Source of the DNA: Candidatus Nanosynbacter sp. HMT-352
Lineage (GTDB): Bacteria > Patescibacteriota > Saccharimonadia > Saccharimonadales > Saccharimonadaceae
Direction: 5' to 3'
Length of the DNA stretch: 64,000 nt
NCBI RefSeq assembly: GCF_022819385.1
Contig: NZ_CP089290.1
Location: forward strand, 682,001-746,000
Part shown: piece after piece, positions 8,425 to 63,940 of the stretch
Numbering within the stretch: position 1 is the stretch's first letter
Layout of the letters: each line of letters opens with the position of its first letter
Position numbers and translations under genes: made by a program
Notes under the pieces: generated by a model
Database searches by the model: none
What the model saw: the letters and a program-made list of their open reading frames with translations, nothing else
What the model was told of the DNA's origin: nothing

Positions 8425-10527
8425 TCAAATTTTCTCCAAGCGCGCGAACTCAACGTTCAATTTCTTAATATTTCCATTGTCAAACTGAACCGTAACACTC
8501 AGCCCTTCGCTATCAATAATTTCTCCCGAACCAAAACTCGGACTGCGAACTCGATCGCCAACTTCCAAACCAATATCTTCCGAATAAAAATCAGGCTCTA
8601 TCATCGGCTGAGCTGGTCTATCAACACCACCAGCCATCAAGCCCATTTCGTCCAAAAACCTCGATGGCATGTTATAGCCAATCTGACCAAATTGCGTCCG
8701 AGAGCTGGCACAACTAACGAACAATTCTTCCCTCGCCCGAGTTACGCCAACATAACACAACCTGCGCTCTTCTTCTACGTCATCAGCGTTGCCGCTATCA
8801 AACACTCTTGCGTGCGGCAAAATCCCCTCTTCCAGTCCCGCCAGAAAAACCACCGGGAACTCCAAACCTTTAGCCGCATGAAGCGTCATGAGCGTTACTT
8901 GCTGATCGGCAGTTGTGTCCGTCGAAGACATCAAAGCCATCTCTTCCAAAAACGTCGCCACGTCAACGTAAGTCTTCGCCTCTGACAAAAGCACGCCGAT
9001 ATTTTCCATTCGCTCCTCAGCTTGCGGCGTTCCATCGTTTATAAAATCTTCATAGCCAGTACTTTTCATGATTTTTTCAATCAGTTCGGCTGGAGATCCG
9101 TCAATTTCCTGCTGCAAATCGTGCAGTTTTTGACCAAACTCTAGCAACGGACGTTTTGCACGCGCCGTCAAAGTATCCGCCTCCTCAACCGCCAGCAACC
9201 CGCTAATTATGTCCTTCCCTGACGCGTCATTCCAGTCCAAAAACTTAGAAATACTCACTGCGCCAACGCCACGTTTTGGCGTATTCACAATTCGCAAAAA
9301 ACTAACTCGATCACTCGGCTGATACAACAATCGCAGATATGCCAATAGATCCTTAACGACCGCTCGATCCAAAAATCGCAGACCACCGACGATTTTATAC
9401 GGAATATAACTCTGACGCAAGGCTCGCTCAATTGCGTAACTTTGTGCGTTCGTTCGGTACAACACCGCCACGTCGCCATATTGACGACCGTTCGCAATTT
9501 GCGCCTGAATCTCATTCGCAATCGCCAAAGCCTCCTCAGATTCATTGTATAATTGCCATAATTTCGGCTCAACACCGTCGCCATTCGCCGTCCATAAATT
9601 TTTATCAGTTCTATGAATATTATGGCTAATCAGCGCATTTGCCATATTCAAAATCGCGCCAGTCGAACGATAATTTTGCTCCAACTTAACTACTGTCGTA
9701 CCTGGAAAATCACGCTCAAAATTGAGAATGTTAGTATAATCAGCCCCGCGAAAACTATAAATCGACTGGGCATCATCACCAACCACGCATAAATCACGAC
9801 GCGAATTCACCAGCAACTTAATTAGCGCATACTGCACCGCATTCGTGTCCTGATACTCGTCAATCAGAATATGCTCGAATTGCTGCTGCCATTTATGACG
9901 AATGTCCGGCTTATTTCTCAATAATTCCACGGTTTTTATCAATAAATCGTCAAAATCCAACGCCGAAGCATCTTTCAGGGCTTTTTCATAAGCAAAAAAC
10001 AATTCAGCTATTTTTTGCTCTCTTGGGCCGCGAGTCGAAGCAGAAAAATCCTCAGCATTTCTCATCTCATTTTTAGCGTTCGAAATAGTCGAAAGTACAG
10101 CTCGAGGTTTAATGTCTTTATCAGTCAAGCCGCGAGCCTTCATAATTTGCTTCATCAAGCTTATTTGATCATCGGTATCGTAAATTAAGAATCGCTTATT
10201 CAGACCAATATTTTCACCATCCATCCGCAACATTCGCACGCAAATACTGTGAAAAGTTCCCATCCACGGCATAAATTGCCGATTTTCAGGATCTTCACCC
10301 AATATTTGTGCCAATCGCTGACGCATTTCCTTCGCAGCTTTATTAGTAAATGTAACTGCCAATATTCGACTAGGAAATATTTTCAACTCGCCAATCAAAT
10401 AAGCGATTCTATGAGTTAGAGTTTTAGTCTTTCCAGATCCAGCTCCGGCCAAAATCAACAGTGACCCATCAGCGTGCGTCACCGCTCGAGCCTGCTCGCT
10501 ATTTAATCCGTCAGTAAATTTAGACAT
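8425..10527 (-). CDS. pcrA: ATP-dependent DNA helicase PcrA/UvrD
   Basis: Superfamily 1A 3'-5' helicase for repair and for clearing RecA or replication conflicts. Motifs seen are Q-motif GLNSEQARAVTH, Walker A AGAGSGKT near residue 30, motif Ia TFTNKAAKEM, motif II LIDEYQDTN, motif III VVGDDAQSIYSFRGA, motif IV LEQNYRST, motif V TLHAAKGLEF and motif VI YVGVTRARE. The C-terminal 45 residues form the Tudor-like RNA polymerase-binding module (GDRVRSPSFGSGEI). Length of 700 aa is normal. The upstream gene stops 5 bp before it. A TAAAAT box at 10534-10539 sits 6 nt from the ATG, so a second, leaderless start is possible. Confidence 0.97.
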   Translation of the reverse strand: MSKFTDGLNSEQARAVTHADGSLLILAGAGSGKTKTLTHRIAYLIGELKIFPSRILAVTFTNKAAKEMRQRLAQILGEDPENRQFMPWMGTFHSICVRMLRMDGENIGLNKRFLIYDTDDQISLMKQIMKARGLTDKDIKPRAVLSTISNAKNEMRNAEDFSASTRGPREQKIAELFFAYEKALKDASALDFDDLLIKTVELLRNKPDIRHKWQQQFEHILIDEYQDTNAVQYALIKLLVNSRRDLCVVGDDAQSIYSFRGADYTNILNFERDFPGTTVVKLEQNYRSTGAILNMANALISHNIHRTDKNLWTANGDGVEPKLWQLYNESEEALAIANEIQAQIANGRQYGDVAVLYRTNAQSYAIERALRQSYIPYKIVGGLRFLDRAVVKDLLAYLRLLYQPSDRVSFLRIVNTPKRGVGAVSISKFLDWNDASGKDIISGLLAVEEADTLTARAKRPLLEFGQKLHDLQQEIDGSPAELIEKIMKSTGYEDFINDGTPQAEERMENIGVLLSEAKTYVDVATFLEEMALMSSTDTTADQQVTLMTLHAAKGLEFPVVFLAGLEEGILPHARVFDSGNADDVEEERRLCYVGVTRAREELFVSCASSRTQFGQIGYNMPSRFLDEMGLMAGGVDRPAQPMIEPDFYSEDIGLEVGDRVRSPSFGSGEIIDSEGLSVTVQFDNGNIKKLNVEFARLEKI

Positions 10528-32701: not shown

Positions 32702-35152
32702 CTAGCTATTCAGTGGCGGATTCTGAATTCCTGACGGCATTTGCGCAGATTGCGAACCTAAAATCTGGCGAATCTGATCAGCGGTGATAATTGTGGTCGA
32801 ACCGGGCGCGACAGTTCCCGCCAGCATTTGCTTGGCGACGGTATTCTCGACAGCTCGCTGGACGACGCGGCGCATCGGACGAGCTCCCAATCTTGGATCA
32901 TAGCCAGCCTCGACCAGCAATTTCTTACCTTCTTCCTCGACCGCAACTTGAATTTTTTGCGGCGCCAAAGTCTTATTAACTCCTGCCAAAATCAAATTGA
33001 CAACCTGCAGCAACTCATCTTTTCCTAGCGGACGGAACAAAACGATTTCATCAAAACGGTTCAAAAACTCTGGGCGGAATAAATTGGCGTTAATCAACTC
33101 GTTAATAAATGTCTGCTCGAATTGTTCCAATTGATAGCCCCGCTCAATATATTCACGAATTCTATCCGCGCCAGCATTTGACGTCGCAATCACAATCGTA
33201 TCGCGAAAACTAATTTCTCGGTTATTTTCATCGCGAAGTATTCCCTCATCCAAAAGCTGCAAAAGCGTCGTCAGAACCTGCGGATGAGCCTTTTCAATTT
33301 CGTCCAAAAGCACGACAGAGAACGGGCGCTTCTGAACTTGAGCAGTCAAACTCCCTGGATCTCGCGCGCCATCCGCAATTAACCTAGCCACGTCATCCGG
33401 CCTGACAAATTCGTTCAAATCCAAGCGAATCATATTGCCCTCACCGCCAAAATAAACATCCGCCAAAGCTTTAGAAAGCTCCGTCTTACCAACACCAGTC
33501 GGACCGAGAAACAGGAATGCGCCAATCGGTCGATTCTGATTTCTAACACCTGTGCGCGCGCGGCGAATAGCATCAGAAACAACTGTCACGGCTCGCGTTT
33601 GATTGATCATTCGCTGATGAATTAATGACTCCAAGTTTAACAATTTTTCCTTTTCGTCACTCAAAGATGCTACCGAAATTTTTATACCAAGAGTTTTTTC
33701 GATCGCATCGTCCACAGATTGCGCAGTCACTAGCCCGCCGCTGGCGTAACTTGCCGCCGCTTCCAAAATTTTCAACGCCTTACCTGGCATCACCAAATCT
33801 TGAACATAACGATCACCAACACGATATGCCTCCGCCAGCGCCTGATACATATATGTCACTTTGTGCTGTGCCTCAAATAAAACCAATTGATCGCGCATAA
33901 TTTTCATAGTTTCAGGTTCGTTTGACGGCTGAATTGCAATTGTGTTCAAAGCGTGAGCAAGCTGCGGCTTAGTCTGAGAAATTTGCAAAAATCGCTGATC
34001 GTCCATCGTTAAAATCGTCCTAAGTCTACCGGCCTCCAGAATTGGCAATAACACATTACTCAAGTCAACCGAACCAACGCCTTCTTCGAAGAATAATTGC
34101 GCATTGTCCAAGCATAAAATCACGTTTTTCGACAAGAAAGCTTCGTTCAAAATCATCGTGACTAGATTTTCCAATTCCCCGCGACCCGACGCCACACTAA
34201 TCAACGACGACGCGTCAAGCATAAAAACTTGCTGATACATCAGAGAACCAGGAACGCCTCGATGTCCGTCAATCAGCATTTCCGCAAACGCCGACACGAC
34301 AGTACTTTTTCCTGCACCATCAGCTCCAACTAGCGTAATATTCTGCCGCCCGCCAGAACTAAACGTTTTAAGCATCTGTCCCAACGCTTCCTCGTGTGCA
34401 GCCAACTTAGTTGTAAACGCGCCGCCAGATACACTGACGCTAACATTCTGAGCAAATCGACTCAGCAGTGGCGTATAACCAAAAGACCAATCCCTAGCAA
34501 TTCCGCCCGTATTTAGCGGCTTCTCTTTATATTGATCAATCAGCGCCTTTATTCGCTCGTACCATCGAATAGCCTCCTCGATATCATGAAAATCGATCTT
34601 CATATTCGCCAGCAAAGAATCGTGCTGTGGCAATTGCTTTACTATCGCCGCCGCCAAAACCGCGCTAGTAATCTTCGGACTTTCCGTGCTCTGCCAGATT
34701 TCAATCGCCGCCTTCCAAATCTGCTCCGTTCGGTTCGGATCGTCGACGGAAATATTACGCAAGAAATTCGGCGTCAAACCCAGCCGCACTGCCAAAAATT
34801 GCCCAGCTCGCGTGCCTGTAATCGCCTCAGCAATATCAATCGGCGTCGGTCTGCGCGGCAATTTACCCAAAACGTCCGCCGCCATCACATCGTCAATTGT
34901 CTTAGGATTTTTACTAATTTCTGCCGTCTTAAGATCTTTTTCCCACCAAATCGACACCATAATCATTGGACCGCTCAGACCAAATAATAGCCAGCCAATT
35001 GCCCCGTGTTCGATCAACGACCACACGCCAAGCAAAACTAACATAATGCCGACAGCTATCGCCACGATATGCCAGGCATTGCCAAACCTTACAGAAAATC
35101 GCGCTTTCTGGGCTCGTAAACTGTCGTAATTAAATCTCGGCTCTATTTCCAT
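32702..35152 (-). CDS. Membrane-anchored ClpC/ClpB-like double AAA+ ATPase
   Basis: 816 aa. Two helices (residues about 27-75) anchor the N-terminus. Then come a Clp-N-like helical region, D1 with Walker A GADGAGKST, and D2 with Walker A GPTGVGKTE, Walker B VVLLDEIEKAH, sensor-1 VIATSNAGA and the sensor-2 DPRLGARPMRR. In D1 the Walker B reads VILCLDNAQLFF, with Asn-Ala in place of the catalytic Asp-Glu pair, so D1 may bind but not hydrolyse ATP. No ClpP loop is obvious. The frame extends to 35239, but GGGAG upstream of ATG 35152 and the 10-bp overlap with the preceding gene favour the shorter start. Confidence 0.87.
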   Translation of the reverse strand: MEIEPRFNYDSLRAQKARFSVRFGNAWHIVAIAVGIMLVLLGVWSLIEHGAIGWLLFGLSGPMIMVSIWWEKDLKTAEISKNPKTIDDVMAADVLGKLPRRPTPIDIAEAITGTRAGQFLAVRLGLTPNFLRNISVDDPNRTEQIWKAAIEIWQSTESPKITSAVLAAAIVKQLPQHDSLLANMKIDFHDIEEAIRWYERIKALIDQYKEKPLNTGGIARDWSFGYTPLLSRFAQNVSVSVSGGAFTTKLAAHEEALGQMLKTFSSGGRQNITLVGADGAGKSTVVSAFAEMLIDGHRGVPGSLMYQQVFMLDASSLISVASGRGELENLVTMILNEAFLSKNVILCLDNAQLFFEEGVGSVDLSNVLLPILEAGRLRTILTMDDQRFLQISQTKPQLAHALNTIAIQPSNEPETMKIMRDQLVLFEAQHKVTYMYQALAEAYRVGDRYVQDLVMPGKALKILEAAASYASGGLVTAQSVDDAIEKTLGIKISVASLSDEKEKLLNLESLIHQRMINQTRAVTVVSDAIRRARTGVRNQNRPIGAFLFLGPTGVGKTELSKALADVYFGGEGNMIRLDLNEFVRPDDVARLIADGARDPGSLTAQVQKRPFSVVLLDEIEKAHPQVLTTLLQLLDEGILRDENNREISFRDTIVIATSNAGADRIREYIERGYQLEQFEQTFINELINANLFRPEFLNRFDEIVLFRPLGKDELLQVVNLILAGVNKTLAPQKIQVAVEEEGKKLLVEAGYDPRLGARPMRRVVQRAVENTVAKQMLAGTVAPGSTTIITADQIRQILGSQSAQMPSGIQNPPLNS

Positions 35153-35567: not shown

Positions 35568-36830
35568 ATGGCAAGACAGATGATTAGTACTATTATTGGC
35601 AAAAGCGTCAAGAAAGTCGCTAAATTACGCGGTGGCGGTTCAGCCTTGCCGGGTTTGGTGATTGAAAAAATTGACCCAAAATTTATTCAGAGAACGTTGG
35701 CAGATTTACCGCAAGGCGTGGTGATTATCAGCGGAACGAATGGGAAAACGACGACGACAAAAATCGTCGTAGAATTGTTGGAATCAGTCGGATTGAAAGT
35801 CTTCACGAATCGCACTGGTAGCAATTTTTCCCGAGGTGTGGCAGCGGCGCTGCTCGATGAGGTCAATATCCGCGGCAAGCTGGACGCCGACATTGCAGTT
35901 CTGGAACTGGACGAGGCTTGGGCGGTTAAATTCGTGCAGATTGTTCGTCCGCGCTTTTCCCTGCTTCTGAATGTTATGCGCGATCAATTGGACAGATTTG
36001 GAGAAATCGACAATACAGCCGCACTGCTCCAAAAAATAGCTGAAGCCACTAGCGACACTGTCGTTCTCAACCGCGACGATCCGCGAATTTTTAAGATTAG
36101 CGAACATATTCAGGCTAAAAAAGTTTTCTTCGGTACAACCAGCGAATTACTTCAATTGATGCCAACGGACGACACCCTAAAATACGGAAACGCAGTCGCA
36201 AATCAAAGCGTGACGGCCGATGTTTTATTGAAAAAGATTAACGCTCAACAGGCTACTTTTCAAATTGACAATAAAGAAATTGACGTAGATCTGCAACTCA
36301 CTGGAGTTTACAATCTTCTCAATGCGGCGGCAGCGGTTGCCCTGGCTCGACAAATAGCGGGACCGGAAATTACCGATACGATTTTATCTGCGTTGAAAAA
36401 CATAAAGCCGGCGTTTGGTCGTGGCGAAACGATCTACCTGAATGGCACGCCAATTGAGCTTATTTTAGTGAAAAATCCAAGTGGCTTTCGGTTGGCGCTT
36501 CTGTCGTTTGCCAAAAATAATAGTGCTACGATGATCGCTGTTAATGACAATTACGCCGACGGACGAGATGTAAGTTGGTTCTGGGACGTCGATTTTTCGC
36601 TATTAAAAAACGTAGCGATGATCAGCGGTGCGCGTGCTTACGATATGGCTTTGCGACTTCAATATGACGACATTTTAATTGGGAAAATTGACACCAATAT
36701 TTCGAAAGCCCTGGAGGATTTCATTAATACTAATCCCGATGAGCCGAAACAGATTTTTTGTAGCTACACGGCCATGACAGCGATTCGTCGCCTGCTGAGC
36801 GAAAAAACCGACGTGGAGGAAATATCATAA
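35568..36830 (+). CDS. murT: Lipid II isoglutaminyl synthase, Mur-ligase-like subunit MurT
   Basis: With GatD it amidates the alpha-carboxyl of D-Glu in lipid II, using glutamine-derived ammonia and ATP. Seen: P-loop ISGTNGKTTTTK, the central Mur-ligase domain with VLNRDDPR, and the C-terminal MurT domain NDNYADGRDVSWFWD, whose Asp completes the GatD triad. The four-Cys zinc ribbon of Gram-positive MurT is absent, and the protein has only one Cys near its end. Leaderless start. Its stop overlaps the gatD start. Confidence 0.93.
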   Translation: MARQMISTIIGKSVKKVAKLRGGGSALPGLVIEKIDPKFIQRTLADLPQGVVIISGTNGKTTTTKIVVELLESVGLKVFTNRTGSNFSRGVAAALLDEVNIRGKLDADIAVLELDEAWAVKFVQIVRPRFSLLLNVMRDQLDRFGEIDNTAALLQKIAEATSDTVVLNRDDPRIFKISEHIQAKKVFFGTTSELLQLMPTDDTLKYGNAVANQSVTADVLLKKINAQQATFQIDNKEIDVDLQLTGVYNLLNAAAAVALARQIAGPEITDTILSALKNIKPAFGRGETIYLNGTPIELILVKNPSGFRLALLSFAKNNSATMIAVNDNYADGRDVSWFWDVDFSLLKNVAMISGARAYDMALRLQYDDILIGKIDTNISKALEDFINTNPDEPKQIFCSYTAMTAIRRLLSEKTDVEEIS

Positions 36831-53836: not shown

Positions 53837-53879
53837 AAAACTATTATAACGCTAAAATTATACGCTAGCTACTGGTGGA

Positions 53880-54404
53880 CTATTCGATCACCTCAACCAC
53901 TTTGCCATGTACGCCGTTATAACAAGCAGCGGCACGCGGCTTAGTAATAGCCGGCAGTTGGCGCGGAATAGCGCTCATATCGACATCGCCAAGCGTACCA
54001 GCCTCAACAATGCCAAGCGTAATGTGTGGGCGAAATCCATCGATATCCAGCCCCGGATGAATATCATCCAGCATTTCAAGCAACTTCCGACGTACTTCAA
54101 TCATCCAGGAGGTTTTCTGTACGCGCAGTTCAACCCAAACACAGTTACCAGCTTCATCTGGCAAGAAGTTGACACCGTCAAGTACCAGTTTGTCTAGAGA
54201 CGGCAGCGCGGCGGCAGCTAACTTGAGACGCGGTATATCCTGCTCAGTTACATTAATCAGTGTCACGTGTGGGATAAACTCACCAAAGTCAAGGTTCATT
54301 GTTTCTGACAACTCGCGAAGATACGCATTTTGCTCATCATCAAAGACGAGACTGACTGACGCCATATGTTTTTCGACTGGATATGCAGTATCTGCTGCGC
54401 GCAT
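53880..54404 (-). CDS. 2H phosphoesterase (LigT / 2'-5' RNA ligase-like)
   Basis: 174 aa with the two diagnostic H-x-T-x motifs, FIPHVTLINV and FRPHITLGIV, one per lobe. Such enzymes act on 2',3'-cyclic phosphates or 2'-5' bonds in RNA. The recA stop and this ATG overlap as TAATG, implying re-initiation; MASVSLVF at 54365 is an alternative start. It appears richer in GC than its neighbours and splits the usual recA-recX pair, hinting at insertion. Confidence 0.87.
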   Translation of the reverse strand: MRAADTAYPVEKHMASVSLVFDDEQNAYLRELSETMNLDFGEFIPHVTLINVTEQDIPRLKLAAAALPSLDKLVLDGVNFLPDEAGNCVWVELRVQKTSWMIEVRRKLLEMLDDIHPGLDIDGFRPHITLGIVEAGTLGDVDMSAIPRQLPAITKPRAAACYNGVHGKVVEVIE

Positions 54405-56760: not shown

Positions 56761-56779
56761 GCCTATATTATACCATAGA

Positions 56780-56912: not shown

Positions 56913-57848
56913 CTAAACATTCACAATCTCGCCTCTTATACAAGCCGTCCCAGCATGCGCATTTGCCGCCAACTTATAATTCTTGATTTCGTCCCAAATC
57001 TCACACATATCGCCGTCCAAATTATGTAAATACCGCTGCGTTACTTGTAGGCTCGAATGCCGCAATAATCTCCGCACTACATCGACGTCAGCACCACGCT
57101 TGCGCACGTCAGTGGCGAAACTATGGCGCAGTTCGTGTAGCTGAAACCCCTCCAGCCCCGCCTCGCGAAATTGCCGCTGTATTTTCTTGCGGATACCGTC
57201 AACCGTTAGCGGCTCAAAGTAGTTGCGCCTTGTCGTCTTAATCCACATGTAGTCGATCACGCCAGCCGCCCTGATCCATGTGTCTAGCCGCTCGCGGGTC
57301 GTGTCAGAAATGTACACCCAGCCGTCCTTTCGTCCTTTGCCCACTGTATAGATCGTTCGTCCATTCAAGTCGTTCAGGCGTAAGTTCGCAAACTCCTGTG
57401 CGCGCATCCCCGTATCAAACAGTACACGAATCATCACCTCAGTAAGCAAATCATCGCAACCACTCAGCACCATTGCAATCTGCTCCGATGTATACCATTT
57501 TCGGCGGCATGGTGCAGGCTTTGGCTTTACTACCATCCGGGTTTTGATTTTCATCGGATAGTTCATGTCTCGCAGCCAAGCTATCCACGATATCACCGTA
57601 GCAACATTAGTGCGTATCGTTGTAGAATTACACCTCGAACCGAGCTGTCCCAATGCCTTTTTCTCAATCCATCGATCAAGCTTTTTATTAGTTAATTGCG
57701 ACATATCTTCAATATTTGTCTGGGCAATAAATCTACTTAAGACACTACGTTTTGTTGCCATAGTTGAAGGGGTTAGTTGCTTCACATTCATACACCACTT
57801 CAAGTAAACTCGCAACTGATTCTCTGCTGGCGTTCGCTTTATCTTCAT
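56913..57848 (-). CDS. int: Tyrosine recombinase / phage integrase
   Basis: 311 aa. SAM-like core-binding domain (1-100), then the catalytic domain with Arg in DTGMRAQEF, a beta-hairpin Lys near GKGRKDGW, HELRHSF (HxxR), LLRHSS and the nucleophile Tyr in TQRYLHN. AGGAG 6 nt before ATG 57848. It marks the left end of the prophage and may also act on the inversion site at 62451/63206. Confidence 0.95.
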   Translation of the reverse strand: MKIKRTPAENQLRVYLKWCMNVKQLTPSTMATKRSVLSRFIAQTNIEDMSQLTNKKLDRWIEKKALGQLGSRCNSTTIRTNVATVISWIAWLRDMNYPMKIKTRMVVKPKPAPCRRKWYTSEQIAMVLSGCDDLLTEVMIRVLFDTGMRAQEFANLRLNDLNGRTIYTVGKGRKDGWVYISDTTRERLDTWIRAAGVIDYMWIKTTRRNYFEPLTVDGIRKKIQRQFREAGLEGFQLHELRHSFATDVRKRGADVDVVRRLLRHSSLQVTQRYLHNLDGDMCEIWDEIKNYKLAANAHAGTACIRGEIVNV

Positions 57849-58120: not shown

Positions 58121-58155
58121 TACCCTCCATTTTTCAAGCCAAGCTAGCTTTTTAG
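58121..58155. repeat. 35-bp direct repeat, copy 2
   Basis: Second copy; it includes the last codons and stop of the gene ending at 58144. The copy at 57966 therefore carries a duplicated gene end. Confidence 0.85.
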
Positions 58156-58530
58156 ACAAATACCCATATCGCCATACATCTGCGATATCTTCGCTCTACC
58201 GCTATAATTCATATCTCGTCTGGCTCTTTCCTCCATTTTCCGTTGTTTCTTCTCTTGCCGCTGCCGCGCCAGTTCATTGATCGCTCTGGCAATTCGACCG
58301 CGCATCCACAATAGCGACTTCTCCAGATTTTTTAGCGACCAAATTGACGCGAGGTACCTCTCAGGGTCGCGTTTAGTTTTTGCTACTTCAACTGATTCGT
58401 CGAACTCTTGTTTATATTTCTTTTGCCGATTACGAAACATTGGCAAATATGCGTCGTCTTTGATTAGTTCTGACGCTTTGCCGAGGTGTTTGCGCATCGT
58501 GGCGATTCGTTTATTGTCTACAACGAACAT
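58144..58530 (-). CDS. Basic helical phage protein, 128 aa
   Basis: No family recognised. It is almost fully helical and very basic, with a coiled-coil centre (AIWS-like SLKNLEKSLLWMRGRIARAI) and RQRQEKKQRKMEERARR near the end. A GAGGG Shine-Dalgarno precedes the ATG. Its position next to the integrase suggests a DNA-binding or control role, which is only an inference. Confidence 0.65.
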   Translation of the reverse strand: MFVVDNKRIATMRKHLGKASELIKDDAYLPMFRNRQKKYKQEFDESVEVAKTKRDPERYLASIWSLKNLEKSLLWMRGRIARAINELARQRQEKKQRKMEERARRDMNYSGRAKISQMYGDMGICLKS

Positions 58531-60656: not shown

Positions 60657-61907
60657 TTATTTATTAAAATTTTTGAATAAATTGGTTAAAAATTCGATGA
60701 TCTTATTGACGAGCACCTCCAGCGCCGAAACTCGCTTTTCTAGGCTATCGATTGGCTTATCGCTTAGATACAGCTTATCGATTGCTAGCGTACCGCCCTC
60801 TAACACCATCAAGTCATCATCAACCAGTCTCGTAACATGAGTGACGCGAACCTTTGTTCCCATTGGTAATTTCTTTGCTAATTTTCCAGTAGTTAGGTCA
60901 GTAACCTCACACTCTGAACGCGTCCAGAAGTCTTGGTCGGCAATATCCTTCAGATTCTTTTGCCATGCCGGCTTATCTTTATTTGGATCAGCTGGCGCAA
61001 CTAGCTCTGTCGCCGCGATGCCGAACGGCTTGCTATTCTTAACGGCGTACTGCGATAGGTAGTATTTCTTGCCCTGCACTATCGTCTCCTTGGCGATATC
61101 GATAACCGTCCCTCTAGGAATCACGTTACCAAACGCTTCCATGGTTACCATATTGACGGCACGTAGTCCTGCGACTGGTGCGACGACCAGTTTTATATCT
61201 TCAATATCGTTCAGGTTACGCACCCACTCGCTTTGTTTCAATTCTTCCGCTTGGCGAGCCAGCTCTGCACGTCGTTGGTGCGCCTCCTGAGAGTTATTTA
61301 CATCAGCACGAATTTGGTCGATTGACCATCCCTTAGCAGCTTGCCCCAAGTAGTGTTGTAAACCCTCTGGGTCAACTTCACGCCCTAAAATTGAGCGGAA
61401 CACTTCGCGAATCTGCGTCTCGTTGACTGTCGGACGCGAACCGCCGCCAGCGTGATAGCGATCAGCGATTGCACGGATACGGTTCTTGTCGATTGGTGAG
61501 CAACTAGTGTTGAACCATTCTTTATGCACGTAAATATTTAGGCGGCGGCCGTAAGCTTTCTCCATATCGTAGTGGAACTCGCCCATCGTCTCATAATCAC
61601 CATCGCTAAGGCGTGTATTACATTCATAACCGACCGTTGTAGCGTTACCTCTAGCATTACCAGCGTGCCAAGCGGCGTTTACAGCATCTATAATCCATGC
61701 CACTCTGCCCGCCTCGCCGACAGTGTGCGCTGAGGTATTACCATTAGCGCGGCATAGATAATTCACTATCGACATAAAGTCTGAATTACTGCCCCACCAG
61801 TGATACGTTACACCCTCTACGACTCGTGCCATGCCATACACCGCTGATACTTGGCTTTCGGGCGTATAGTTCGGCGAGTTAAATTGTGTTAGTTCTTGGT
61901 ATGACAT
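60657..61907 (-). CDS. Endolysin: N-acetylmuramoyl-L-alanine amidase (Amidase_2)
   Basis: 416 aa. Residues 1-150 form a PGRP-type amidase with zinc ligands in YHWWG, AWHAGNA and NTSCSP. Residues 160-205 match a DUF4214-like helical unit (IREVFRSILGREVDPEGLQHYLG). Two further beta-rich repeats follow (each near W-NL-DI) and a C-terminal coiled coil with an amphipathic end. AGGAGG upstream of the ATG overlaps the end of the small upstream gene. The target is the wall of the CPR cell itself. Confidence 0.92.
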   Translation of the reverse strand: MSYQELTQFNSPNYTPESQVSAVYGMARVVEGVTYHWWGSNSDFMSIVNYLCRANGNTSAHTVGEAGRVAWIIDAVNAAWHAGNARGNATTVGYECNTRLSDGDYETMGEFHYDMEKAYGRRLNIYVHKEWFNTSCSPIDKNRIRAIADRYHAGGGSRPTVNETQIREVFRSILGREVDPEGLQHYLGQAAKGWSIDQIRADVNNSQEAHQRRAELARQAEELKQSEWVRNLNDIEDIKLVVAPVAGLRAVNMVTMEAFGNVIPRGTVIDIAKETIVQGKKYYLSQYAVKNSKPFGIAATELVAPADPNKDKPAWQKNLKDIADQDFWTRSECEVTDLTTGKLAKKLPMGTKVRVTHVTRLVDDDLMVLEGGTLAIDKLYLSDKPIDSLEKRVSALEVLVNKIIEFLTNLFKNFNK

Positions 61908-61910
61908 TTC

Positions 61911-62045
61911 CTACTCCTCCTTTAACACTTTCTTAATGAACCGATAAACAAATTTGAAAGTTGCCGCAAGCAGTAAACCAACTACTGCACCACTAAACGC
62001 GCCTGCAAATATCGCCATAAAAAATAACTGCTCCAACATACTCAT
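61911..62045 (-). CDS. Small membrane protein of the lysis cassette, 44 aa
   Basis: MSMLEQLFFMAIFAGAFSGA leads into a single long hydrophobic stretch and a basic end (FKFVYRFIKKVLKEE). ATG 62045 overlaps the TGA of the XhlA-like gene (ATGA), and the stop is 3 bp before the endolysin ATG. Likely a second holin or pinholin. Confidence 0.7.
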   Translation of the reverse strand: MSMLEQLFFMAIFAGAFSGAVVGLLLAATFKFVYRFIKKVLKEE

Positions 62046-62332
62046 TTCGCTATCCTATCGATAATTACCATTTTCAGTATTGCTCCAGCCACGGCGGCGA
62101 TGATGAACCAAACTATCCTTGCTTGGTTGTCTTCCAGCTTATCCAACCTATCTTCATGATTTCCTACGTCTTTTTCCAGCTTCACTAGCCGCTCTACTAC
62201 CACCGTCAGATCCAGTCTGTCAATCTTTGCGCTGATTGACTCTATCTGATTCCTGATGTTTTGTATATCGGCGTCCATCTTTCCTAATTTTTGCCATAGC
62301 TCCGCTTCGTTAGTATTATTTGCTGCTGCCAT
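62042..62332 (-). CDS. XhlA-like lysis protein (coiled coil plus C-terminal helix)
   Basis: 96 aa. Coiled coil (KMDADIQNIRNQIESISAKI through HEDRLDKLEDNQ) then one helix (IVWFIIAAVAGAILKMVII), the layout of haemolysin XhlA proteins that act with holins. AAGGAG 12 nt before the ATG. Preceded by the promoter-hairpin leader at 62376-62417. Confidence 0.85.
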   Translation of the reverse strand: MAAANNTNEAELWQKLGKMDADIQNIRNQIESISAKIDRLDLTVVVERLVKLEKDVGNHEDRLDKLEDNQARIVWFIIAAVAGAILKMVIIDRIAK

Positions 62333-62375: not shown

Positions 62376-62417
62376 AAAAATATGCGTCCTGAAACGCATA
62401 TACTTACCTACATTATA
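62376..62417 (-). promoter_or_regulatory. Lysis-cassette promoter with immediate terminator-like hairpin
   Basis: Extended -10 TGGTATAAT (TATAAT at 62412-62417) is followed within about 10 nt by the stem ATATGCGT/ACGCATAT (62401-62394 with 62387-62380), 6-nt loop, and TTTTTATTT. Transcripts would have to pass a terminator to reach the lysis genes. Confidence 0.6.
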
Positions 62418-62450
62418 CCACGATTTTACCGTAAACATAATGCATTTTTC

Positions 62451-62467
62451 ATGGTTCTATACAACCA
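62451..62467 (+). repeat. Inverted repeat, left copy (inversion site)
   Basis: ATGGTTCTATACAACCA, exact inverse of 63206-63222. The inner 16 bp are dyadic: TGGTT and AACCA around a 6-bp CTATAC core, as in recombinase core sites. Confidence 0.85.
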
Positions 62468-62836
62468 CAACATATTGGCTGGAAAGATTTTATTCAATCG
62501 AAACAAGACAATGCCACTCTGCCAGTTGTACCTGCTATCATCCAGTATGGTCGAGCAAGAGTAAGAGTGCCGACTGATACCGTAGAAGCTACGACATCAG
62601 TCACGTTTCCAAAGGAATTTGAGAACGGAATGATACCAACTATCATTTGCACGTACAACGGCTACGGCAACGCTAGCGACCCGTGGTCAGATACACCAAA
62701 TCCGTCTTGGGCTGGGGCAACATTTGGAGCTGTTGGCGTTACTAATTCAGGGTTTACGGCACGTTGCCGGCGTTTTGACGGCGCTATGCTTAGAGGCGTG
62801 TATTACTTTAGTTGGGTTGCGATTGGTGCAGCTTAA
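62451..62836 (+). pseudogene. Silent alternative tail-fibre C-terminus (inversion partner)
   Basis: Open frame on the plus strand with no start, opening at the inverted repeat (a stop lies 10 nt before it). It encodes GSIQPQHIGWKDF, then a beta domain with VTFPKEFENGMIPTIIC and ends YFSWVAIGAA, like gp53-type fibre tips. It ends base-to-base with the expressed fibre gene. It reads in the same phase as the fibre gene at the repeat, so inversion would join it to the N-terminus. Confidence 0.8.
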
Positions 62837-63331
62837 TTATTTAACATACTCCATAGTAACACTCACTTCCGAACTGCCCCAAGCATAACTGCCAGAAATA
62901 GTAATATTCGTTTTATCAATGGAGGTAATACCAGCTTGGTGCGTCCCCTCAATATATGGCAGTGCCTGTTTTATGGGATTGTTTGACAATACGCCGGACA
63001 ATCTCATATTGCCAGACCACGAAATCAGCTCCCAGGCGTTAGTCAAGCCGGTAATGCCATGAGGCAGGATTGAGGTGTTGTTCCCACCAATCATATTGAC
63101 CGCACCACGCGCAACCTTACGATAAATCGGTCGACCATCGATCCATTTTCTGCCAGTATCCATCTCAGTAGATTTATAGGCTTTAAGGCTATCTGCTAAT
63201 TTATCTGGTTGTATAGAACCATCGCCTATCCCCGTTCCATCATGAAAACTAGCGTCATTTGCTGCCAAAAGATTCATTTTTGCCGCTGTTAAAATTTCGC
63301 CCGGCACAAAATTTAAGTTAACATACGCCAT
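62837..63331 (-). CDS. Short tail-fibre protein with invertible C-terminus
   Basis: 164 aa. The constant N-terminus (YVNLNFVPGEILTAAKMNLL) resembles the start of phage tail-fibre or receptor-binding proteins. From GDGSIQP at residue 36 on, the 127 residues lie within the 772-bp segment bounded by the inverted repeats. Segments include TGRKWIDGRPIYRK and a beta-rich end (TNITISGSYAWGSS). The alternative tip lies tail-to-tail on the other strand. Confidence 0.85.
   Translation of the reverse strand: MAYVNLNFVPGEILTAAKMNLLAANDASFHDGTGIGDGSIQPDKLADSLKAYKSTEMDTGRKWIDGRPIYRKVARGAVNMIGGNNTSILPHGITGLTNAWELISWSGNMRLSGVLSNNPIKQALPYIEGTHQAGITSIDKTNITISGSYAWGSSEVSVTMEYVK
63206..63222 (-). repeat. Inverted repeat, right copy (inversion site)
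   Basis: Minus-strand ATGGTTCTATACAACCA within the GSIQP codons of the fibre gene. Together with 62451-62467 it bounds two arms of exactly 386 bp each. Confidence 0.85.
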
Positions 63332-63332
63332 A

Positions 63333-63872
63333 CTATCTCACCCTTTCTATTTGAAATGTCTCAAATCGCTCAATAATCATACCTTTATCGCTATACTTCA
63401 GCTCGTAATCTGCCTGCTCTTTATGGACACTTTGCTTTAGTGCCACTTCACTCTCTAGCTGCGCTCGCTCGAACGGGCTCATAGCAAATGAGTTCACCAG
63501 CTCTACTGGACTAGCCTCGCCTGGTTGCACTGGATTTATTGTTCCTCTCTCAAATTTAGATAACCGCGTGTCGTTGCCGGTTAATGCTTCATAACCAATC
63601 ATCGGAAATCCTTCAGGCGTTTTATCTAGCCTCTCACGGGTCGTCAGAAATAGCCCCTGATAATCATAAATATCACGGTTGCCCCCACGCCTAGGTGCGT
63701 TAATTGCTGAAAAGCCTTGAATTGTCTTTGCCGGAAAACACTCAACTGCGACTACCAGATTAGTTTTCAGACATCTCACAAAGTACACCTGGCTGTAATG
63801 TTGAGCATAAAAATCTGCCATTTTCTCCAGTTCGGCTTGATCTTGCGTTTGCTTGGCTGTCTCGCTATCCAT
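63333..63872 (-). CDS. Unknown phage protein, 179 aa, upstream of tail fibre
   Basis: No family recognised; mixed fold (SQVYFVRCLKTNLVVAVECF, APRRGGNRDIYDYQGLFL) with a helical coiled-coil end. GGAGG lies 5 nt before ATG 63872; the TTG at 63884 would lie before the Shine-Dalgarno spacing. It stops 1 bp before the fibre ATG. Probably a tail or fibre-assembly protein. Confidence 0.7.
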   Translation of the reverse strand: MDSETAKQTQDQAELEKMADFYAQHYSQVYFVRCLKTNLVVAVECFPAKTIQGFSAINAPRRGGNRDIYDYQGLFLTTRERLDKTPEGFPMIGYEALTGNDTRLSKFERGTINPVQPGEASPVELVNSFAMSPFERAQLESEVALKQSVHKEQADYELKYSDKGMIIERFETFQIERVR

Positions 63873-63885
63873 TATTTCCTCCAAT

Positions 63886-63934
63886 AAAAATACGACCGCC
63901 GCTCTGGCTGGTCGTATATACTGCTTACATTATA
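63886..63934 (-). promoter_or_regulatory. Tail-operon promoter with immediate terminator-like hairpin
   Basis: TGGTATAATGTA (TATAAT at 63929-63934), then AGTATATACG and the stem ATACGACC/GGTCGTAT (63890-63897 with 63910-63917) and a T run. Nearly the same promoter and leader start as at 62376-62417. Confidence 0.6.
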
Positions 63935-63940
63935 CCACAT

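What the first reader, a model, noticed from the sequence alone, without database searches (positions are those of the whole stretch)
62451..63222. Invertible tail-fibre cassette in a CPR prophage
A 17-bp inverted repeat (ATGGTTCTATACAACCA) lies at 62451-62467 and, inverted, at 63206-63222. It encloses two convergent frames that end at adjacent bases (62836 and 62837). Each arm is exactly 386 bp. Both frames read the repeat as GSIQP in the same phase, so inversion would join the constant N-terminus (35 residues) to either of two 127-residue tips with no visible similarity. The plus-strand tip has no start or promoter and is silent as sequenced. This is the layout of the Mu/P1 and Min-type fibre-switch systems, here with minimal fibres. 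Host-range switching in a phage of an ultra-small epibiont has, to my knowledge, not been described.
Basis: partly seen in the sequence, partly recalled or inferred. Interest (0 to 1): 0.95.

Follow-up and report, generated by a model that had tools for sequence, protein, structure and literature searches.

The report
Invertible tail-fibre switch in Saccharibacteria prophage
A prophage in a Saccharibacteria chromosome carries two alternative tail-fibre tips facing each other between mirrored 17-base repeats, a segment predicted to flip and so swap the tip, and database relatives carry the same fibre start joined to either tip, although which enzyme would do the flipping is unknown.

Summary
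Confirmed and strengthened. A perfect 17-bp inverted repeat encloses two convergent 127-codon frames that read it in the same phase (GSIQP) and stop at adjacent bases. The constant head is 37 residues, not 35. The outward tip (tip B) matches a tail-fibre domain (Pfam Gp53-like_C). Decisive new evidence: the protein database holds a 164-aa protein with the identical head joined to tip B (P0121, tip 96% identical), 30 with the same or nearly the same head joined to tip A, and head-less copies of both tips. So both junctions exist in nature, though seen only at protein level. Two other Saccharibacteria genomes carry cassettes of the same design; G153's repeat has a related core (GGTTCTATnnAACC), and G135's contig ends exactly at its repeat. 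A phage contig with a related endolysin holds a four-ended shufflon layout. No serine invertase was found. The nearest recombinase, a Xer-like tyrosine integrase 4.6 kb away, is my favoured invertase but weakly supported: no repeat-like site at the attachment junction, and cassette-linked integrases form no clade. It works like Gin/Cin/Rin fibre switches but misses a defining feature of each. My searches found no report from a Patescibacteria phage.

The parts
62451..62467 (+). left crossover repeat ATGGTTCTATACAACCA (reads GSIQP into tip B)
63206..63222 (-). right crossover repeat, inverted copy, inside the fibre gene (reads GSIQP into tip A)
63221..63331 (-). constant fibre head, 37 codons (MAYVNLNF...TGIGD)
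   Evidence: head matched by 58 database proteins
62837..63220 (-). tip A, joined to the head as sequenced: 127 codons including GSIQP, plus stop
62453..62836 (+). tip B, head-less and so presumably silent as sequenced: 127 codons including GSIQP, plus stop; Gp53-like_C, weaker H_lectin
56913..57848 (-). Xer-like tyrosine recombinase with no arm-binding domain match (integrase; candidate invertase)
56774..56775 (.). prophage/chromosome junction (about): homology to two uninserted relatives ends here
58144..58530 (-). 128-aa gene near the integrase; a 35% identical homologue lies between cassette and integrase in genome G153
60657..61907 (-). endolysin (amidase)
62042..62332 (-). coiled-coil lysis-module protein: best PHROG 'hemolysin', Pfam XhlA below cut-off (best Pfam hit FlaC_arch)
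63333..63884 (-). 183-aa gene directly upstream of the fibre; no family match

Best explanation
This prophage segment holds two convergent alternative tail-fibre tips between perfect 17-bp inverted repeats that both frames read as GSIQP, and site-specific inversion there is predicted to join the constant 37-residue head to one tip or the other. As sequenced, tip A is joined to the head; tip B lies head-less on the other strand. Shown: the anatomy; a fibre-domain match for tip B; database proteins with the same head joined to tip A, to tip B and to other tips at the same codon; head-less copies of both tips; independent cassettes of the same design in two other Saccharibacteria genomes and, with four ends, in a phage contig. 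Inferred: that recombination at the repeat is site-specific and reversible, that a phage population is mixed for the two tips, and that the tips bind different receptors. The recombinase is inferred to be a Xer-like tyrosine recombinase without an arm-binding domain; the prophage's own integrase (56913-57848) is my first choice at about 0.35 to 0.4, ahead of an unseen prophage gene or a host Xer acting in trans. The confidence given is for the inversion, not for the enzyme.
For: Repeat, phase and adjacent stops. Tip B hits Gp53-like_C (2.8e-6, above gathering) and a tail-fibre PHROG (5.2e-6). P0121 (a cluster of 294 members), P0122 and P0152 carry the head plus a tip B family tip; P0001-P0030 carry it with tip A. 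Of 39 proteins with a head at least 95% identical (of 58 found), 33 have tip A family tips, 3 tip B, 2 tip C, 1 another. Four 108-aa proteins are tip A starting at the same internal Met, as a silent copy would be called. A second head type is joined to tip A (P0031) and to tip B (P0124). G153: 24-bp perfect repeat with shared core GGTTCTATnnAACC, in-phase convergent tips, Xer-like recombinase 0.8 kb on. G135: contig begins exactly at its 19-bp repeat, which has just two copies in that genome. L003: four ends, each behind the same 17-bp site, in two convergent pairs. With repeats of 17 bp or more the signature was absent from 79 other collar-fibre loci (the best 80 kept of 214, less L003's own contig) and from 54 integrase or chromosome loci.
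Against: No inverted molecule was seen; the window's own assembly, its reads and the DNA behind P0121 are not held or not found. The head-to-tip joints come from different contigs, so they could also arise by recombination between phages. For the integrase as invertase: no repeat-like site (up to 3 mismatches) at the attachment junction of the window or elsewhere in G153's contig; the three cassette-linked integrases are not a clade; of 49 further loci with such an integrase one passed the cassette test, with 14-bp repeats in paralogous genes, and was rejected (many of these loci are cut by contig ends); the four-ended contig has no detectable tyrosine or serine recombinase, though it may be a fragment.
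Confidence: 0.87

Rival explanations
1. Tip swapping is by ordinary recombination between co-resident phages at a conserved short stretch; tip B is a parked remnant or reservoir and does not flip back and forth.
For: The same head is joined to many unrelated tips (16 groups among 58 proteins), more than a two-state switch makes, so exchange between phages very likely happens too.
Against: Tip B is intact over 127 codons, in the same phase as the repeat, on the opposite strand, with its stop adjacent to that of tip A; the same head is found joined to it at the same codon. The convergent design recurs in G153, G135 and L003. A 17-bp identity is short for RecA-type recombination (general knowledge).
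Confidence: 0.1
2. Rival to the enzyme part only: inversion happens, but the recombinase is supplied in trans by the host (a chromosomal Xer or another mobile element) or by a gene in the unseen part of the prophage, not by the integrase.
For: No invertase gene adjoins the cassette; none was found in L003's 40-kb contig; relatives carry further Xer-type genes and G153/G135 have serine recombinases elsewhere. A recombinase-less inverted locus was described in bifidobacterial prophages (PMC6109161, passages read).
Against: In both relatives with this context a tyrosine recombinase lies 0.6-0.8 kb from the cassette. Rin uses a recombinase of that arm-less type.
Confidence: 0.5
3. The plus-strand frame is a separate small gene (89 aa from GTG 62567) with its own role.
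For: An ORF from GTG 62567 exists; many tip B relatives are listed as ORFs without a head.
Against: P0121, P0122, P0152 and P0124 show the tip as the C-terminus of a full fibre; homology begins upstream of the GTG, right at the repeat.
Confidence: 0.03

Closest known systems
Rin shufflon of Bifidobacterium prophages (PMC6109161; abstract and passages read) and of Eggerthella lenta prophages (PMC8778435; passages read)
   Same: Constant receptor-binding-protein N-terminus joined by (putative) inversion at short sites to alternative C-termini in a temperate phage; the recombinase is XerD-like and lacks an arm-binding domain.
   Different: Rin has several variable ends, an adjacent dedicated rin gene separate from a Lambda-Int-like integrase, and an 11-bp asymmetric site TTCCCTAACCC. 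Here there are two tips, a 17-bp near-palindromic site and no adjacent recombinase.
Recombinase-less inverted locus in tRNA-Met bifidobacterial prophages (PMC6109161, passages)
   Same: Two dissimilar segments exchanged at a short repeat with no recombinase at the locus.
   Different: 8-bp site, genes of unknown function, other phage and host phylum.
Gin (Mu), Cin (P1), Min (p15B) and E. coli e14 P segment (PMC12529663 and PMC6109161, passages read)
   Same: Alternative tail-fibre ends between inverted repeats inside the fibre gene; the convergent layout of Mu and P1 is recalled.
   Different: They use small serine invertases (PinQ acts in trans); segments of 1.8 kb (P), 3 kb (G) and 4.2 kb (C) as given in PMC12529663, against 0.77 kb here. 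No serine recombinase found here.
IncI shufflon with Rci (PMC5430464, search listing with start of abstract only)
   Same: Multiple end swapping by inversion; L003 resembles it in layout (Rci as tyrosine recombinase is recalled).
   Different: Plasmid pilus protein PilV, not a phage fibre.

Membership tests
Gin/Cin/Min/Pin serine-invertase fibre switches | alternative fibre ends between inverted crossover sites within the fibre gene | tested here: met
Gin/Cin/Min/Pin serine-invertase fibre switches | small serine DNA invertase encoded at the segment | tested here: not met
   none among 10 prophage frames scanned with Pfam, which include both neighbours of the cassette; no tblastn hit in the window to serine-recombinase ORFs of relatives (one search repeats this with an insensitive model); the prophage beyond 64000 is unseen
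Rin shufflon | XerD-like arm-less tyrosine recombinase directly flanking the variable ends | tested here: not met
   nearest tyrosine recombinase is 4.6 kb away, beyond the lysis genes; in G153 and G135 one lies 0.6-0.8 kb away
Rin shufflon | several (more than two) variable ends | tested here: not met
   two tips in window, G153, G135; four in L003
Site-specific fibre-tip inversion (general kind) | both junctions occur in nature | tested here: met
   protein level only, on different contigs: P0121/P0122/P0152 against P0001-P0030
Site-specific fibre-tip inversion (general kind) | inversion demonstrated at DNA level in one clone | not testable with these tools
   own assembly not held; no DNA relatives of the fibre in viral, genome or phage collections
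Prophage of Saccharibacteria | phage genes inserted in a Saccharibacteria chromosome, with an empty site in relatives | tested here: met
   left junction only

The most novel reading that the evidence does not exclude
Phages of the ultra-small Saccharibacteria share a common pool of receptor-binding tips and use short family-specific sites inside the fibre gene as universal docking points: a Xer-type recombinase supplied in trans both flips the resident pair (or shuffles four ends) and captures new tips from other phages, perhaps to alternate between the epibiont and its bacterial host as binding target.
Probability: 0.2. Interest if true: 0.85.

Novelty: new variant of a known kind. Interest (0 to 1): 0.68.

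Why it matters
Fibre-tip switching is described, for example, in phages of Proteobacteria (Mu, P1) and Actinobacteria (Rin); my searches found none from a phage of Patescibacteria. Saccharibacteria phages must find a very small cell that sits on another bacterium, and little is known of how they bind (general knowledge). A two-state tip with named sequences makes that directly testable: each tip is a candidate receptor binder. The tip families (A, B, C) shared across heads and genera also suggest how these phages trade adsorption parts, and the missing invertase raises the question of which recombinase a host genome of about 0.7 Mb lends its phages.

Tried and rejected
DNA relatives: scans of viral contigs with the fibre, its neighbour, tip A, tip B and head alignments gave none, nor did genome contigs with tip A or the phage collection with the fibre, P0121 and the G153 fibre. 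Only the endolysin reached a viral relative, L003. Family-wide genome search with tip B: 0 of 394, which the tool says shows nothing without a known positive; with the tip A fibre alignment: 7 of 394, mostly weak, of which G153 and G135 hold the cassette; the stretches fetched of G312, G319, G378 and G012 show none, and G116's short stretch showed no perfect long repeat. Genus search: 0 of 9.

Integrase as dedicated invertase: tested by a tree of 52 recombinases (L106 and L111 dropped because no open stretch gave a 200-residue match; several nodes poorly supported) and by looking for repeat-like sites at the junction; neither supports it. L114's convergent pair with 14-bp repeats was rejected: two paralogous genes, repeats inside conserved motifs. 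L157 and L221 14-bp hits were treated as chance (27 repeats in 751 kb). L083, L101 and L077 passed a looser test but their stops lie 0.5-2.2 kb apart.

Serine recombinase in the window: the model made for one search came from a single gene and missed a large serine recombinase in its own control contig, so that search is weak; the chromosomal part of the window was not scanned with Pfam.

Fold of the tips: not obtained (see below); by sequence no solved structure matches tip B, and the only hit of the fibre alignment (E 0.08) is meaningless.

Full report
Observation. The repeat ATGGTTCTATACAACCA lies at 62451-62467 and, inverted, at 63206-63222. No other site in the 64-kb window matches it within 3 mismatches (expected 0.13 matches by chance). 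Within it TGGTTCTATACAACCA is 14/16 self-complementary, which is what a recombinase core site with two inverted half-sites often looks like (general knowledge; inference). From the two repeats two convergent frames run 127 codons each, both reading the repeat as GSIQP, and their stops touch. The minus-strand frame continues upstream into a 37-residue head with its own ATG, giving a 164-aa fibre. The plus-strand frame has in-frame stops just upstream and no start until GTG 62567.

Host and prophage. Both relatives align with the window up to 56775 (SAG3 lacks a 0.57-kb stretch further left) and then continue with nearly the same sequence as each other, without the phage: an empty site. From there the window holds a tyrosine recombinase, lysis genes (amidase endolysin, a haemolysin/XhlA-like coiled coil) and the fibre. 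The other prophage end is outside the window.

What the tips are. Tip B matches Pfam Gp53-like_C (tail fibre C-terminus; 2.8e-6, above the gathering score) and, below its cut-off, H_lectin; its PHROG hit is a tail fibre. The head-tip A protein has no Pfam, PHROG or NCBIfam hit but 259 database relatives, 120 of them listed. The two tips are not similar at E 1e-4.

Both junctions exist. A search with the head alone (residues 1-42) returned 58 proteins. Cut at residue 42 and clustered, they fall into 16 tip groups: 36 tip A-like, 3 tip B (P0121, P0122, P0152), 3 tip C (P0151, P0156, P0157), groups of 3 and 2, and 11 singletons. Among the 39 with a head at least 95% identical: 33 A, 3 B, 2 C, 1 other. 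P0121 has a head identical to the window's over 42 residues and a tip 96% identical to the window's silent tip B. So the junction that inversion would make here is found in nature, in a close relative. Conversely, four 108-aa proteins (P0035, P0036, P0048, P0050) are tip A without the head, all starting at the same internal Met, as expected of gene calls on a silent copy. In all, 17 tip A and 26 tip B proteins among the 175 in hand have at most 25 residues before the tip; this list is limited by the 120 rows shown for tip A and by the length filter of the search. A head-less gene call could also come from a frameshifted head (P0139 looks like one), so this is supporting, not decisive. A second head type (...DIVLP) is likewise found joined to tip A (P0031) and to tip B (P0124). 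The limit of this evidence: it is protein-level, from different contigs, and no DNA of these contigs could be fetched.

Independent cassettes. (1) Genome G153, another genus of the same family: head plus tip at 8476-8976, a convergent tip at 9056-9466, 24-bp perfect inverted repeat read in phase as DGSIEPSK, core GGTTCTATCGAACC, that is the window's GGTTCTATnnAACC; then a homologue of the window's 128-aa gene (35% identity) and, 0.8 kb from the cassette, a Xer-like recombinase, then an elongation-factor-G-like gene (named from recall). Its silent tip is related to the tip C family found on the window's head type. (2) Genome G135, a third genus: the contig starts exactly at a 19-bp repeat whose only other copy in the genome closes the cassette 645 bp on; two convergent in-phase tips, one weakly related to tip A; a Xer-like recombinase follows. 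A contig ending at the repeat is what an assembler may do when both orientations are present (inference). (3) IMG/VR contig L003, found through a 45%-identical endolysin: a collar-type fibre (Gp10_C/Collar, below cut-offs) followed by three more ends; the 17-bp site AATACACCTTTTACGAC precedes each of the four ends in the same phase (NTPFTTLG), arranged as two convergent pairs: a shufflon layout. The host of L003 is unknown. L003 and G135 sites share TTTTACGAC.

Is the signature special? Requiring a perfect inverted repeat of at least 14 bp, in-phase frames of at least 60 codons from both arms and stops within -60 to 150 bp, hits were: window, G153, G135, L003; 3 of 80 collar-fibre loci (the best 80 kept of 214; one is L003's own contig, two have 14-bp repeats); 1 of 54 integrase or chromosome loci (14-bp repeats inside paralogous genes). 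With repeats of 17 bp or more only the four cassettes remain.

Which recombinase. In the window the only recombinase found is the tyrosine recombinase at 56913-57848 (311 aa; residues that I recall as the catalytic ones, R149, K171, H238, R241, H264, Y273, are invariant in a three-way alignment; best NCBIfam models are Xer types, all below cut-off; no arm-binding domain match; PDB relatives by sequence include XerA and XerD). Arm-less tyrosine recombinases are predicted to drive Rin, the closest known switch (PMC6109161, passages). In G153 and G135 such a gene lies 0.6-0.8 kb from the cassette. Against it: no repeat-like site at the attachment junction; window, G153 and G135 recombinases do not group together in a tree of 52; 47 of 394 family genomes carry a recombinase matching the model at E 1e-35, but of the 49 further loci fetched round them only L114 passed the cassette test and was rejected; many of these loci are cut by contig ends, so absence there is soft. 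L003's contig has neither tyrosine nor serine recombinase by Pfam or tblastn. So the enzyme stays open: integrase about 0.35-0.4, otherwise host Xer or a gene beyond 64000.

Known systems. Layout resembles Gin/Cin/Min and the e14 P segment; enzyme class probably differs. Rin of bifidobacterial and Eggerthella prophages is nearest in enzyme type but has multiple ends, an adjacent dedicated gene and an 11-bp site. Literature searches for Saccharibacteria/CPR/Patescibacteria with tail fibre or receptor-binding and inversion returned 0 papers; 'saccharibacteria, prophage, phase variation' returned one review (listing only); 'nanosynbacter, prophage' returned 5 (listing only; one of them is PMC13059738 below); 29 papers held 'saccharibacteria, prophage, tail' (25 listed), of which I read passages of two: one reports 120 Saccharibacteria prophages and its main text lacks 'invert' and 'recombinase' (PMC10746230), the other a patescibacterial phage, with 'invert' only for a microscope and terminal repeats (PMC13059738). 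The library lacks most subscription journals and holds no bioRxiv library, so the claim of novelty is bounded by that.

Verdict.

Noticed in passing
L003:8015-9876 (IMGVR_UViG_3300049571_000196): Four-ended shufflon-like tail-fibre cassette in a 40-kb phage contig that also encodes a chaperonin-family and a Rad52-like protein; no tyrosine or serine recombinase found in the contig.
   Followed up: yes
window 33883-33900 / 35974-35991: Perfect 18-bp inverted repeat CCAATTGATCGCGCATAA, 2.1 kb span, in chromosomal genes (by eye a Clp-like ATPase and a Mur-ligase-like gene); no convergent in-phase frames.
   Followed up: partly
window 62409-62421 and 63926-63938: TACATTATACCAC repeated; on the minus strand it holds TGGTATAAT, an extended -10-like element upstream of two phage genes (promoter consensus recalled).
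   Followed up: no
P0151, P0156, P0157 and L037:9056-9466: A third tip family (tip C) occurs on the window's head type and as the silent tip of the G153 cassette: tip repertoire shared across genera.
   Followed up: partly
proteins P0033, P0043, P0045, P0053 and relatives: Several different fibre heads end in IDFTTMP or IDFTTIP just before tip A, matching the G135 site peptide KIDFTT: probably a second crossover-site family in related phages.
   Followed up: partly
L114:12434-14413 (G337): Convergent paralogous genes beside a Xer-like recombinase, with two short inverted repeats in conserved motifs.
   Followed up: partly
window 58144-58530: 128-aa gene with a homologue near the integrase in G153 (35% identity), no family above cut-off; possibly an accessory recombination factor (guess).
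   Followed up: partly
window 53837-54402 against L136: TM7 oral taxon 352 SAG3 lacks a 0.57-kb chromosomal stretch present in the window and OX335598.1.
   Followed up: no
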